A stretch of 60,948 nt of DNA from Alphaproteobacteria bacterium (GTDB taxonomy: Bacteria; Pseudomonadota; Alphaproteobacteria; Elsterales; Elsteraceae): assembly GCA_004292755.1 (NCBI GenBank), contig RDXE01000041.1:1-60948 (forward strand). Reading direction: 5' to 3'. The position numbers and the translations under genes were made by a program. Below the pieces are notes generated by a model. That model had not been told where the DNA came from, made no database searches, and was given only the letters and a program-made list of their open reading frames with translations. Every line of letters begins with the position of its first letter. The stretch's first letter is position 1. Positions 2,359 to 60,024 of the stretch are shown here, piece after piece.

Positions 2359-3285
2359 ATGCAGCTAGACATTGTGGCCCTTGGCGAGCCGCTGGGGGAA
2401 TTCAACCAAACCCGCCCTGGTGAGCCGGACTATCGATTCGGTCATGGCGGCGACACGTCCAACGTCGCGATTGCCGCGGCCCGGCAAGGTGCCAAGGTCG
2501 GCTATGTCACTGCAGTCGGGGATGACGCCTTCGGTCGCTCCTTCCTGGAGCTGTGGCAGCGCGAAGGGGTGTTCGTCGGCGGGGTGAAGGTGGACCCAAC
2601 TGCCCATACCGGGGTGTACTTCGTCACCCATGGCCCGGACGGGCACGAGTTCTCCTACCTCCGTGCAGGCTCGGCCGCATCGCGCCTTGGCCCTGGCGAT
2701 CTGCCGCGGGATGTGATTGCCGCCGCCCGGCTGCTCCACGTCTCTGGTATTTCGCAAGCGATCTCGCCCGCCGCGGCCGATGCGGTGTTTGAGGCGATGG
2801 CGATTGCCCGCGCGGCTGGTGCCACCATTGCGTACGACACCAATCTGCGCTTGCGCCTGTGGCCGTTGGCGCGGGCGCGTGCGGTCTCTGGTGCGGCGAT
2901 GGCGCTGGCGGACATTGCTCTGCCGGGTCTGGACGATGCGCGGCAGTTGACTGGCCTTGAACAGCCCGACGCAATCGTCGACCACTATCTGGCATTGGGC
3001 TGCAAGATTGTGGCGCTGACGCTGGGCAAGGACGGCTCGTTGGTCGCCACGGCCAGCGAGCGGCAGCGCATCCCCTCGATTTCTGTTGCCGCGATTGACG
3101 CCACTGGGGCGGGGGACTGTTTTGACGGCGCCTTTCTGGCGGAGTGGCTGCGCACAGGCGATGCCTTTGCGGCTGGGCGCTACGCCACGGTTGCGGCTGC
3201 GCTGTCAACCACCGGCTGGGGTGCCGTTGCACCACTGCCGCAGCGGGCGGCGGTGGAGGCAGCGTTGGGCCGCGGGGCGGCGTGA
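2359..3285 (+). CDS. PfkB-family sugar kinase (2-keto-3-deoxygluconate kinase-like)
   Basis: Cytoplasmic ATP-dependent carbohydrate kinase of the ribokinase/PfkB fold, about 308 residues, the usual family length. The N-terminus (DIVALGEPLGEFNQ) and HGGDTSNVA correspond to the sugar-binding region. The DATGAGDCFDGAF motif near the C-terminus carries the anion hole and catalytic Asp. The start pattern is closest to 2-keto-3-deoxygluconate kinases, but fructokinase activity cannot be excluded. ATG 2359 is preferred to the GTG at 2320 because family members start just before this point and TATACT at 2324-2329 looks like a promoter inside the longer version. The stop overlaps the GTG of the MeaB gene. 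Confidence 0.85.
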   Translation: MQLDIVALGEPLGEFNQTRPGEPDYRFGHGGDTSNVAIAAARQGAKVGYVTAVGDDAFGRSFLELWQREGVFVGGVKVDPTAHTGVYFVTHGPDGHEFSYLRAGSAASRLGPGDLPRDVIAAARLLHVSGISQAISPAAADAVFEAMAIARAAGATIAYDTNLRLRLWPLARARAVSGAAMALADIALPGLDDARQLTGLEQPDAIVDHYLALGCKIVALTLGKDGSLVATASERQRIPSISVAAIDATGAGDCFDGAFLAEWLRTGDAFAAGRYATVAAALSTTGWGAVAPLPQRAAVEAALGRGAA

Positions 3286-56210: not shown

Positions 56211-56371
56211 CTAATCGCCGATTTCCGGGGTGGCTAATAGCCGTTTTCCGGGATGGCTAATAGCCGTTTTCCGGGATCACTAATAGCCGATTTCCGGCTA
56301 TGCTAATCGCCGTTTCCCGGCTCGCCTAATAGCCGATTTCCGGCTATACTAATCGCCGTTTTCCGGAAGAA
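56211..56371. repeat. Seven tandem 23-bp repeats (iteron-like) upstream of a DUF4143 ATPase
   Basis: Units start at 56211, 56234, 56257, 56280, 56303, 56326 and 56349, an exact 23-bp period. The conserved core is CTAATMGCCGWTTYCCGG; the last five bases vary, and the seventh unit ends in a partial copy. In units 4 and 6, ATAGCCG and CGGCTAT form a perfect dyad around five bases. Units are not separated by unique spacers, so it is not CRISPR. The array ends about 15 bp before ATG 56386, where it could bind a regulator or the ATPase itself. Confidence 0.9.
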
Positions 56372-56385
56372 TCAGGCTGAGTGCC

Positions 56386-57681
56386 ATGGTTGCCGTTGCT
56401 CGTCACCTGGAGGCCCGTGTGGTGCGCGCGCTGGCAGCGGCCAGGGTGATCAACATTTTCGGCCCGCGTCAGGCCGGGAAGACCACACTGGTACGCGACA
56501 GAATCAAGACCTCCAGCTACGTCACCCTGGATGCCGACGATCTTCGCCAAGCGTTGGCGGCCGATGCCTATGGTCAGTTGCGCTTGCTGGCCCGTGGCGC
56601 AGAGGAGCAGAAGCTGCCGCTTGCCATCGATGAGGTGCAGCGCCTGCCGTCCATGACGCTGGCGTTGAAGCAGATCGTCGATACGAATGACCGCAAAGGC
56701 CAGTTCCTGCTGACGGGATCGTCCAACGTCTTCACTATGGCGGCGGCGTTGGATTCCCTGGCGGGCAGGGTGATGTCTTTCACCCTGCGCCCCCTCAGCG
56801 CGGCCGAGATCCACGGGGCAGGGCCGGTGACCATCCTGGATGCCGTGGCCCGCGCCCCGGAGGATTGCCGATCAGCGCTGCCACTCCCGGCATCGGCCAG
56901 CCGCGAAGAGATGATCGACCTGATGGTCCGGGGCGGGTTCCCAGAAATCCGAACGCTTGCCCCCCAAGATCGTGAGGACCGCTACCGCAGTTATATGGAC
57001 AGTGTGATCGAGCGCGATGTTGCAGTGGTGGAGCCGATCCGCAAACCAGATGGGCTGCGCCGTCTGACTCATCAAATCGCCTATCGGACCGCCGGGGAAG
57101 CCGCTGTGGAGGAGTTGGGGCGCACGGCGGGCGGGCTGCGCAAGGAAACCGTCAATACCTACCTGACCATCTTGGAGAAGCTGGAATTGATCCGCCGTCT
57201 GGGGGCCTGGGCCTCTGGCATGACCCGGCGGGAGATCAAGCGCCCAAAACTGCACCTTCTGGACACCGGCCTTGCCACTGTTTTGCGAGGGGAAGATGCC
57301 TCCAGCTTTGGTGCGCTGGCCAATCCCACGGCGCTGGGGGCCGTCCTTGAAACCTTCGTCTATACCGAGCTGGAAAAAAGTCTGCCGCTGCAATCCAGTC
57401 GGTGGTCCTTGTATCACTATCGCGATGACAACGGGCATGAGGTGGACATCCTGGCCGAGGCACCAGGAAACATTCTCGCTCTGTTTGAAATCAAAGCCGC
57501 GGCGATGGTGAGCGATCGCGATTTCAAGCATCTGGACTGGTTTTTCAGCTCTGCTGGTCCGGGCGCCAGCCACCGGGGTGTGGCGTTTGTGGTCTATCTC
57601 GGCGACCGGTTGCTGTCCTTTGGGCCGCGTCGGATTGCCTTGCCCTTGTCGATGTTCTGGTCGTTTCCCCCCACCACCTGA
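56386..57681 (+). CDS. AAA-type ATPase with DUF4143 and PD-(D/E)XK-like C-terminus
   Basis: A 431-residue protein. The ATPase domain shows Walker A GPRQAGKTT (26-34), Walker B LAIDEVQ (79-85) and LLTGSSN (109-115, sensor-like). A middle helical region (about 180-290) carries a possible winged HTH (RKETVNTYLTILEKLELIRRL). The DUF4143 C-terminus has a nuclease-like pattern GHEVDIL (350-356) and ALFEIKAA (365-372): Asp354 with the ExK of EIK. This could be a DNA-processing or defence protein, but the function of the family is not established. It starts 15 bp after the repeats, with weak ribosome-binding bases. No other defence gene is adjacent. Confidence 0.85.
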   Translation: MVAVARHLEARVVRALAAARVINIFGPRQAGKTTLVRDRIKTSSYVTLDADDLRQALAADAYGQLRLLARGAEEQKLPLAIDEVQRLPSMTLALKQIVDTNDRKGQFLLTGSSNVFTMAAALDSLAGRVMSFTLRPLSAAEIHGAGPVTILDAVARAPEDCRSALPLPASASREEMIDLMVRGGFPEIRTLAPQDREDRYRSYMDSVIERDVAVVEPIRKPDGLRRLTHQIAYRTAGEAAVEELGRTAGGLRKETVNTYLTILEKLELIRRLGAWASGMTRREIKRPKLHLLDTGLATVLRGEDASSFGALANPTALGAVLETFVYTELEKSLPLQSSRWSLYHYRDDNGHEVDILAEAPGNILALFEIKAAAMVSDRDFKHLDWFFSSAGPGASHRGVAFVVYLGDRLLSFGPRRIALPLSMFWSFPPTT

Positions 57682-58965: not shown

Positions 58966-60024
58966 TCAGCGCCGGAGCGGTATGCAGCGCACCCCCGCTG
59001 CGATCAGCGCGCGGCAGCGCGCTTCGATGTCCTCGCGGGAAGCCGGAGCACCGGCGAACACCCGCGTCACGGGGCCAAGGCTGGCAACCTCCGCCCGCTC
59101 ATAGCCGACCTCAAGATCCGCCAGTGCCGCCCCGTGAAGGCGCCGAAGCCGTCGCCACTCCTCTTCCCCGCCACTGCCGTGCCCAGGCACAGAGGCAATG
59201 TGGGCAACAAACTGCCCCGCCTGCGGTCGCGCCGCGATCACTGGTGCGCGTCGCTCCCCCTCACTCTGAGCGGCGCGGGTGGGTGGGGGTGGCGGCGGCG
59301 GAGGTGGTGGCGGTGGAGGCGGCGGTGCAGGCGGTGGTGGCGGAGGTGGAGGTGGTGTAGGCGGCGGCGGAGGTGGCGGAGGGGTTGGCGCCACGGCTAC
59401 TGACGGTGGCAGTGTCCGTGCGGGCCGCGCGGGGGGCGCTGCTGGAACGGGGGGCGGTGCCGGTGTTGGTTCTTGGATCACCCGGTCGGCTGTTTGGACA
59501 TCTGCTGGTGGGAGGCTGGCGGCGAGGGTCTGGGCCAATGCGCTTGCGTCTTCAACGCCCCCCGCGACTGCCCGGCGCGCCCAGCCGATTGCCCGGATCG
59601 GGTCGACCGGTGTGCCGACACCGCGGGCGTGGAGTTGGGCAAGATTGAAGGCCGAGGCGGTGTCTCCCCGTCGCGCGGCAGTTTCGATCAGGCGAAAGCC
59701 CCGCGCAGGGTCCGGATCGATGCCGCGGCCCTCCACCAGCAACGAGCCAAACAACCCAAGTGCCTGACTGTGCCCAGCGGCCGCAGCGCGCTGCACCCAA
59801 CCCACGGCCTCCGCTGGGTCGAGCGCAACGCCGTCGCCCTTGAGATACAGCAGAGCGAGATTGTACATCGCGCGGGCATCGCCCATGCGGGCGGCGGCTT
59901 TGAACTCCTGGGCTGCGGTTTCGGAGTCGCGGGCCTGCAACGCGGCAACTCCCGCGGCAAAATCCGCCACCGCGGGTATTGGAAAACCAAGGCCCAGGGC
60001 GAAAAAGATTAACCCCCGCTTCAT
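58966..60024 (-). CDS. Sel1-repeat, polyproline and SPOR-domain exported protein
   Basis: A 352-residue protein. A signal peptide (GLIFFALGLGFPIPAVA) precedes about four Sel1 repeats (about 22-165: AMYNLALLYLKGDGVALDPAEAVGWVQRAAAAGH and similar). A proline-rich linker at about 185-250 has uninterrupted runs of up to 17 prolines. The C-terminal SPOR domain (about 270-352: FVAHIASVPGHGSGGEEEWRRLRRLHG ... CRALIAAGVRCIPL) should bind denuded septal peptidoglycan. Together this suggests a scaffold anchored at the division site, inferred from domains alone. The GGT-rich coding DNA of the linker is prone to slippage. Confidence 0.88.
   Translation of the reverse strand: MKRGLIFFALGLGFPIPAVADFAAGVAALQARDSETAAQEFKAAARMGDARAMYNLALLYLKGDGVALDPAEAVGWVQRAAAAGHSQALGLFGSLLVEGRGIDPDPARGFRLIETAARRGDTASAFNLAQLHARGVGTPVDPIRAIGWARRAVAGGVEDASALAQTLAASLPPADVQTADRVIQEPTPAPPPVPAAPPARPARTLPPSVAVAPTPPPPPPPPTPPPPPPPPPAPPPPPPPPPPPPPPPTRAAQSEGERRAPVIAARPQAGQFVAHIASVPGHGSGGEEEWRRLRRLHGAALADLEVGYERAEVASLGPVTRVFAGAPASREDIEARCRALIAAGVRCIPLRR

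What the first reader, a model, noticed from the sequence alone, without database searches (positions are those of the whole stretch)
56211..57681. Seven 23-bp tandem repeats with exact period in front of a DUF4143 ATPase/nuclease-like gene
Seven units start every 23 bases with a conserved core and no unique spacers, ending about 15 bp before the ATPase start. Each unit is near two helical turns, and two units contain perfect dyads (ATAGCCG and CGGCTAT); GGCTAATAGCC dyads also arise at unit junctions. The gene encodes a Walker ATPase with a possible winged HTH and a GHEVDIL/EIK pattern like PD-(D/E)XK nucleases. An iteron-like array could serve autoregulation, loading of the ATPase on its own promoter, or mobility. 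The weak ribosome site and a divergent unknown gene make a self-contained locus plausible.
Basis: partly seen in the sequence, partly recalled or inferred. Interest (0 to 1): 0.75.

Follow-up and report, generated by a model that had tools for sequence, protein, structure and literature searches.

The report
Nuclease gene with self-recognised repeat array
A gene from a common but functionally unknown family of bacterial ATPase-nucleases carries seven 23-base repeats in front of it, and relatives carry arrays of the same spacing whose sequence changes in step with the protein's DNA-reading residues, so the protein most likely binds and controls its own gene.

Summary
Confirmed: seven 23-bp units (56211-56371) end 14 bp before an AAA_14-DUF4143 gene (56386-57681). 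The exact core has no other match in this genome, and I found no second array of it elsewhere. But homologues carry arrays of the same kind with other sequences: period 23 is the best period upstream of 78 of 80 homologues; at a fixed score it appears in 68 of 80 upstream stretches and 1 of 2804 other windows. On a tree, 101 of 106 rows of one sub-family have an array (23 bp, or 22 bp in one branch; 10 of the 101 weak, marked by hand), against 0 of 24 scored rows outside.

Unit bases covary with protein residues. Residues 252 and 254, at the start of the modelled winged-helix recognition helix, track unit positions 6 and 7 (254E->G7 37 of 37; 252K->G6 16 of 16; 252R->A6 23 of 24); residue 349 tracks position 17. 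Simulated unlinked traits did not reach these values in 1000 runs. So the protein very probably reads its own array, most likely as an operator. PADLOC lists the family as PDC-S01, an unvalidated defence candidate. My paper searches found no mention of the array. Binding, regulation and the nuclease's target are untested.

The parts
56211..56371 (+). Array of seven 23-bp units (starts 56211, 56234, 56257, 56280, 56303, 56326, 56349). Unit: CTAAT[AC]GCCGNTT[TC]CCGG + 5 variable bases; position 1 is the C of CTAAT
   Evidence: arrays of the same period before homologues
56386..57681 (+). ATPase-nuclease gene, 431 aa, AAA_14 + DUF4143, PADLOC candidate PDC-S01
56443..56811 (+). AAA_14 P-loop domain (residues 20-142); G26, K32, T34, D82, E83 invariant in 47 sequences
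57046..57261 (+). Winged-helix part (residues 221-292). Residues 252 (57139-57141) and 254 (57145-57147), at the start of helix 253-265, covary with unit positions 6 and 7; residues 282 and 285 with positions 15 and 4
57325..57597 (+). PD-(D/E)xK nuclease-like core (residues 314-404); E322, D354, E368, K370 invariant in 47 sequences; residue 349 (57430-57432) covaries with unit position 17

Best explanation
The array is the cognate DNA-binding platform of the protein encoded directly behind it. Each 23-bp unit is read by one protomer: the recognition helix of the winged helix (residues 251-254) reads unit positions 6-7, the wing positions 4 and 15, and a hairpin of the nuclease domain (348-349) positions 15-17. 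Head-to-tail units at a fixed 23-bp step let protomers bind side by side. Because the array lies at the promoter or start codon of its own gene, and no other gene with it was found in this genome, the likeliest function is an operator: the protein represses, or meters, its own synthesis and is held there until a trigger (invading DNA, if the PDC-S01 defence label is right) releases ATP-driven assembly and nuclease activity. Shown: the array, its conservation across a sub-family, the fixed spacing, and the covariation with the protein. Inferred: direct binding, one protomer per unit, repression. Unknown: trigger and nuclease target.
For: (1) Period 23 tops 78 of 80 upstream regions; in coding and downstream controls the most frequent best period is 33 (11 of 80) and 36 (8 of 77); 68 of 80 against 1 of 2804 windows at one threshold. 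(2) Sequences differ between lineages, but unit length, orientation and position hold. (3) Of 417 x 23 residue-base pairs the top APC-corrected ones are 252-pos6, 254-pos7, 349-pos17 and 252-pos7. Tables: 254 E->G7 37 of 37, N->A7 8 of 8, P->T7 5 of 5; 252 K->G6 16 of 16, R->A6 23 of 24, T or S->T6 6 of 6; 349 R->C17 19 of 21, D->G17 29 of 32, E->G17 8 of 8. (4) Unlinked traits simulated on the tree reached the observed values of these four pairs in 0 of 1000 runs; calibrated over all columns, 252, 254 and 349 have the highest z for positions 6, 7 and 17 (7.7, 7.4, 6.5). (5) The helix was placed by the model (pLDDT 92) before the covariation scan. (6) The same pairing recurs in separate branches, e.g. 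K252 with GG in L064, L071, L077 and in Rhodobacterales. (7) In L112, L128 and L033 an in-frame ATG (in L033 the annotated start) lies inside the last unit. (8) No unit match outside the array in the own genome.
Against: No binding or expression data. At position 7 residue 62 of the ATPase domain has slightly higher raw mutual information (1.41) than 254 (1.39). The winged helix as a whole is not enriched: 19 of the 100 top pairs for 71 of 417 columns. Other columns also reach the simulation's p floor (5, 13 and 4 of 417 for positions 6, 7, 17), and the independent-pair sign test had too few pairs to reach 0.05. Rule test on 13 further loci: 2 of 2, 6 of 8 and 8 of 10 for residues 252, 254, 349; but L039 has the same protein as training row L093 and L187 is the same locus as L099, seen before; without these two it is 2 of 2, 4 of 6 and 7 of 9, and most of the rest are near relatives. 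Q252 and V254 give no clear rule. No sigma-70 consensus promoter in the window stretch. L040, L041, L042, L076 and L110 lack a significant array though they sit in the sub-family (the joint motif finds two units in L076 and L110). In one of five rhizobial genomes two lone near-matches to the unit lie outside the array (the reversed control had one match in the five). An RNA role is not excluded: four of six array transcripts fold better than shuffles at z below -2, with different structures. The winged helix could be the packed one of STAND-like ATPases.
Confidence: 0.6

Rival explanations
1. Licensing or loading platform: the protein assembles on its array to load or hold an ATPase-nuclease complex that then acts elsewhere (a parS-like nucleation site). 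Autoregulation would be a by-product.
For: Fixed 23-bp step, 2-10 units, intact ATPase and nuclease motifs. Residue 349 of the nuclease domain also covaries with the unit. Folds near oligomerising AAA+ and STAND ATPases, DnaA and Cdc6/Orc1 among them.
Against: In several members the array reaches the start codon, which a plain loading site would not need. No second array was found in the own genome.
Confidence: 0.18
2. Selfish mobile module: array plus gene is a minimal mobile unit, and the array is where the protein cuts or handles DNA for its own transfer.
For: In some pairs of 91-96% identical copies DNA homology covers little beyond array and gene (L030/L092, L067/L068, L094/L099, L034/L102, L095/L099). 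Two empty sites were found: L145 against L029 (2595 bp) and L146 against L031 (2891 bp). Proteins 53-60% identical occur in records labelled as different phyla, many of them metagenome bins whose labels may be wrong.
Against: Other pairs share kilobases of flank (e.g. L072/L074, L101/L103, L127/L136). The two insertions differ in size and ends: one has terminal inverted repeats well outside the module, the other none and no clear target duplication; both reach about 1 kb beyond the gene. No matching array on the 3' side (downstream control).
Confidence: 0.1
3. Transcribed leader: the repeats act in the mRNA (translation or stability control), with the protein binding RNA.
For: Constant orientation to the gene; the RNA of the window's array folds at z -3.8.
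Against: No shared structure among six arrays folded, one with z 0.0; no Rfam match in the stretch; the covarying residues lie at a DNA-type recognition helix; some arrays end about 100 bp before the matched coding region.
Confidence: 0.05
4. Plasmid-type iterons: the array is part of a replication origin or partition site and the ATPase is its initiator or partner.
For: Direct repeats of about two helical turns beside an AAA-type ATPase with a winged helix; 364 plasmid records hold a homologue; Foldseek lists initiators such as DnaA and Cdc6/Orc1 among its best, with low TM-scores.
Against: Homologues with arrays also lie on chromosome records (L119 on 4.2 Mb, L100 on 1.6 Mb). L196 lies near a separate repC. 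The replicons with the empty sites exist without it. The conserved nuclease motif stays unexplained.
Confidence: 0.03
5. The array is bound by an unrelated host regulator and only happens to sit before the gene.
For: No binding data exclude it.
Against: The repeat changes between lineages together with residues of the encoded protein, and arrays accompany the gene in distant hosts.
Confidence: 0.04

Closest known systems
PDC-S01 (PADLOC phage defence candidate; AAA_14 + DUF4143)
   Same: The window protein matches model PDLC04790 over residues 3-426, E 9e-123. Passages of PMC12988326 call PDC-S01 the fourth most common defence across all prokaryotes, an ATPase domain fused to a PD-(D/E)-X-K member, with experimental validation pending for most PDCs.
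   Different: The passages I saw do not mention a repeat array. The array marks one sub-family: other proteins with the same best model lack a detected one (L147, L151, L040).
Iteron arrays bound by plasmid Rep proteins (recalled)
   Same: Tandem direct repeats of about 20 bp before the gene for the protein that binds them, with autoregulation.
   Different: Here the presumed binder is an ATPase-nuclease, the locus is solitary, and no origin function is indicated.
STAND/MNS-type ATPases (Pyrococcus abyssi PABY2304, PDB 2qen; CED-4; plant NLRs)
   Same: Best VIA-align neighbours of the model: 2qen Z 14.8, 260 residues, rmsd 4.8; RPP1 13.0; CED-4 12.7.
   Different: A C-terminal nuclease-like domain follows here. 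By sequence the PDB gave only short P-loop and kinase matches.
Odn of phage ICP1, a chimeric nuclease (PMC8263062; search listing and start of abstract only)
   Same: A nuclease whose sequence-specific action is tied to iterons (detail recalled; the paper holds 'iteron' 43 times).
   Different: As I recall, Odn's iterons lie in the parasite it attacks; here the repeats lie before the nuclease's own gene.

Membership tests
DUF4143 / AAA_14 ATPase (Pfam PF13635, PF13173) | Both domains above Pfam's gathering score | tested here: met
   123 bits against 28.1 and 88.7 against 27
PDC-S01 (PADLOC) | Match to a PDC-S01 model over the whole protein | tested here: met
   PDLC04790, residues 3-426, E 9e-123
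PDC-S01 (PADLOC) | Antiviral activity | not testable with these tools
   Needs phage challenge; validation pending for most PDCs according to a passage of PMC12988326
PD-(D/E)xK nuclease | Catalytic-type residues on an alpha-beta-beta-beta-alpha-beta core | tested here: met
   E322, D354, E368, K370 invariant in 47 sequences; order of elements 314-404 fits. The motif is recalled; no solved nuclease was matched to this part
PD-(D/E)xK nuclease | DNA or RNA cleavage | not testable with these tools
   Needs an enzyme assay
STAND-like ATPase | P-loop domain followed by a winged helix in STAND arrangement | tested here: inconclusive
   Top VIA matches are STAND types, but Rubisco activase (Z 12.7) ties with CED-4 (12.7), and Foldseek ranks clamp loaders and other AAA+ proteins first
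Self-bound operator or iteron array | Conserved association of array and gene | tested here: met
   both plasmid arrays found by DNA similarity alone stand before such a gene, one of them with a large internal deletion
Self-bound operator or iteron array | Array sequence is read by the encoded protein | tested here: inconclusive
   Strong covariation, no binding assay
Plasmid iteron origin | The repeats act in replication initiation | not testable with these tools
   Needs a replication assay
CRISPR array | Repeats separated by unique spacers | tested here: not met
   Head-to-tail units with only 5 variable bases

The most novel reading that the evidence does not exclude
A large sub-family of the abundant PDC-S01/DUF4143 ATPase-nucleases are self-addressed elements: each lineage has its own readable DNA address (protein residues 252/254/349 <-> unit bases 6/7/17) on which the ATPase assembles at a fixed 23-bp (or 22-bp) step, and divergence of the addresses keeps coexisting or invading copies orthogonal, like incompatibility groups. 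The array would be both off-switch and assembly site of the nuclease.
Probability: 0.25. Interest if true: 0.9.

Novelty: new variant of a known kind. Interest (0 to 1): 0.77.

Why it matters
PDC-S01/DUF4143 genes rank among the most frequent putative defence genes in prokaryotes, yet their function is unvalidated (passages of PMC12988326 and PMC13356809). A conserved cis-element with a readable protein-DNA code gives a first handle: it predicts which DNA each homologue binds, which residues should swap specificity, and how expression may be controlled, and it separates an array-bearing sub-family from the rest.

Tried and rejected
Exact core as a probe: 0 matches in genome contigs to the core followed by CTAAT of a second unit; one lone match in a viral contig, not in an array; of 289 class genomes 14 had a match with up to 1 mismatch, and apart from the own genome none had more than two, at different places. 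Phages as bearers of arrays: no blastn match of the window array in phages, and none for four tandem patterns of other lineages in viral contigs; exact patterns miss variants.

Arrays as a trait of all DUF4143: rejected, 0 of 24 scored rows outside the sub-family; two of these (L153, L180) had another significant period, 33 and 39, and were counted as none. CRISPR, Rfam RNA and sigma-70 consensus promoter: no support. Sequence relatives in the PDB: only RecA P-loop and cytidylate kinase matches. NCBIfam and PHROGs: nothing over a cut-off or convincing. Rules for Q252 and V254: none clear. Neighbours of the nuclease part among solved folds were barely tested: one search covers mainly residues 1-318. 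Close homologues are rare: 4 of 385 class genomes at E 1e-90, 3 of 277 genomes of one family at E 1e-80, so new loci for a rule test were few.

Paper searches without a description of the array: DUF4143 + tandem repeat + upstream (0 papers); DUF4143 (1, a gene table seen as a passage); COG1373 (7, listing only); PDC-S01 (3, passages read in two); phage defence candidate/PADLOC/embedded (343 hits, 10 listed, off topic); AAA ATPase + repeats (0); guilt-by-embedding (6, listing); a broad nuclease/iteron search (53, 12 listed). The founding PDC preprint (Payne et al. 2024, seen only as a reference) is not held, so I cannot say that it lacks the array.

Rows dropped: L083 lacks the N-terminus. L076, L087 (a stop in frame) and L144 are not in alignment A2 of 47 sequences. 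score only loci whose reading frame passed my script; as far as the printed lists show, L090, L129, L133, L144, L152, L157, L168 and L173 among others did not. Nine duplicate loci were left out of the tree, and ten weak rows were marked by hand: eight as 23 bp (one of them, L033, had a slightly better period 15) and two as 22 bp. The covariation set of 74 leaves out 14 listed near-duplicates. L144 (27% identical, clear 23-bp array) is not in the tree.

Full report
What is there. Seven 23-bp units run from 56211 to 56371 on the + strand and end 14 bp before the ATG (56386) of a 431-aa protein. Shuffles of the window give at most 2 core matches where 7 are seen, and the 4.2-Mb genome has no other match with up to 2 mismatches. 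The protein is AAA_14 + DUF4143 and the only DUF4143 match found in this genome.

The exact repeat is private, the kind of array is not. Sampled class genomes, genome contigs, viral contigs and phages gave no second array of this sequence. Homologous genes do have arrays. Of the 80 best of 529 relatives in genome contigs I could use 79, plus one viral contig: period 23 is the best period between 10 and 45 in up to 320 bp upstream of 78 of these 80 genes; the exceptions are L076 and L110. The most frequent best period in the coding control is 33 (11 of 80), in the downstream control 36 (8 of 77). Requiring period 23 and 60% self-match over 50 bp, 68 of 80 upstream stretches qualify, against 1 of 2804 other windows of the same loci (53 of 2804 reach that score at some period). 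A joint motif gives C-T-A-A-T-[AG] with T-rich positions 11-13 and C/T at 16; the rest differs by lineage. Among 81 arrays 61 have 3 or 4 units, range 2-10. Close copies can differ by whole units: L106 is called with 6 and L107 with 8.

How far it reaches. I scored 140 loci against Markov shuffles of their own upstream DNA: 94 have significant period 23 (or 46), 4 period 22 (or 44), 38 none, 3 another period, and 1 was too short. After removal of 9 duplicates, and with ten weak cases marked by hand, a FastTree tree of 131 rows shows two sets with arrays: 86 of 88 rows (8 weak) and 15 of 18 rows (five with 22 bp, two of these weak). None of 24 scored rows outside has a 22- or 23-bp array; the fewest state changes on the tree are 6. 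The tree is rooted at its midpoint and several outer rows are long, so the deep order is unsure. A distant viral-contig member (27% identity, L144), not in the tree, also has a clear 23-bp array.

The protein. The AlphaFold2 model (47 sequences, pLDDT 92, pTM 0.92) shows a P-loop domain, a winged helix (helices 221-233, 241-247, 253-265, strands 269-272 and 288-291) and an alpha-beta-beta-beta-alpha-beta core from 314 (the domain reading is mine). G26, K32, T34, D82, E83, E322, D354, E368 and K370 are invariant in both alignments. VIA-align puts STAND-like ATPases first (2qen, Z 14.8); Foldseek puts AAA+ clamp loaders, DnaA and Cdc6/Orc1 first, with TM-scores of 0.4 or less. PADLOC calls it PDC-S01.

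The code. For 74 loci (effective number 33) I computed mutual information between 417 protein columns and 23 unit positions. The highest APC-corrected pairs are 252-pos6, 254-pos7, 349-pos17 and 252-pos7. Residues 252 and 254 sit at the start of helix 253-265. Tables: 254 E->G 37 of 37, N->A 8 of 8, P->T 5 of 5, Q->A 5 of 6, D->G 2 of 2, V mixed; 252 K->G 16 of 16, R->A 23 of 24, T or S->T 6 of 6, Q A or G; 349 R->C 19 of 21, D->G 29 of 32, E->G 8 of 8. These fit commonly described side-chain preferences (Lys/Arg with G, Asn/Gln with A, Glu/Asp with C on the other strand; recalled). The pairing recurs in separate branches: K252 with GG in L064, L071 and L077 and again in Rhodobacterales; R252 with AG in the window's branch and in L131, L139 and L141; T or S252 with T6 in L081, L085 and the L034 group.

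How strong. Simulating unlinked traits on the tree reached the observed values for these four pairs in 0 of 1000 runs, and for 253-pos9 in 1 of 1000. Calibrated over all columns, 252, 254 and 349 have the top z for positions 6, 7 and 17; position 4 points to residue 285 and position 15 to 282, 348 and 251. Against: residue 62 has slightly higher raw information with position 7 than 254; 5, 13 and 4 of 417 columns reach the p floor, so the floor alone is not proof; the winged helix as a whole holds 19 of the 100 top pairs with 71 of 417 columns, no enrichment; independent pairs were too few for a sign test. A rule written down before and applied to 13 further loci was right in 2 of 2, 6 of 8 and 8 of 10 cases. 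Two of the 13 were not new: L039 has the same protein as L093, and L187 is the locus of L099. Without them the counts are 2 of 2, 4 of 6 and 7 of 9, and most of the rest are near relatives of the training set. This is a weak confirmation.

Where the array sits. In the window it covers -175 to -15 from the ATG. In L112, L128 and L033 an in-frame ATG falls inside the last unit. The last unit deviates at position 6: of 38 arrays whose inner units have G6, 30 have A6 in the last. This may lower affinity or serve the promoter; I cannot tell. No sigma-70 consensus was found in the window stretch. In five rhizobial genomes 9 of 11 matches to a rhizobial unit lie in the arrays; two lone ones lie elsewhere in one genome, and the reversed control had one match.

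Mobility. Some copies 91-96% identical share little beyond array and gene, others share kilobases of flank. Two empty sites show insertions of 2595 and 2891 bp, one with terminal inverted repeats and one without, so carriage by different routes is likelier than self-transposition. A DNA search with one long array found two plasmid arrays: one before an intact gene (Pararhizobium sp. A13, L190) and one in Rhizobium sullae before a gene whose middle is deleted.

Verdict. The array is a real, sub-family-wide cis-element, very probably read by the encoded protein. Autoregulation at the own promoter is the best reading (0.60), an assembly or licensing platform next (0.18). Binding, regulation, trigger and nuclease substrate remain to be tested.

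Noticed in passing
L010 about 2878-3057 (G006, same family as the window's genome): Exact 23-bp repeats run into a stretch of N before a distant homologue, about 300 bp after what reads by eye as a serine tRNA gene; the array may be longer than the assembly shows.
   Followed up: partly
last unit of 38 arrays: The promoter-proximal unit changes G to A at position 6 in 30 of 38 arrays, the very base that tracks residue 252.
   Followed up: partly
   Followed up: partly
L031:1879-4769: In NGR234 the module lies inside a 2891-bp insertion with near-identical inverted ends (TGTGGRAAGACACARAG); I saw no obvious transposase among the ORFs listed but did not search them.
   Followed up: partly
3' sides of L028, L030, L073, L092, L099: A motif like GGCRTTTGCTACC stands behind the gene in several unrelated contexts; possibly a common insertion neighbour.
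   Followed up: no
L033, L035, L152: Genes annotated DUF1403 and ScpB-like stand beside the ATPase gene in Thioclava, Sulfitobacter and (divergently, beside a distant member without a visible array) Mesorhizobium plasmids.
   Followed up: no
L197 (Rhizobium sullae): An array and the first codons of the gene are directly followed by its last part: an internally deleted remnant that keeps its array.
   Followed up: partly
window 59282-59390: A GGTGG-type tandem repeat that encodes a proline run in the minus-strand ORF 58966-60024; an ordinary coding repeat.
   Followed up: no
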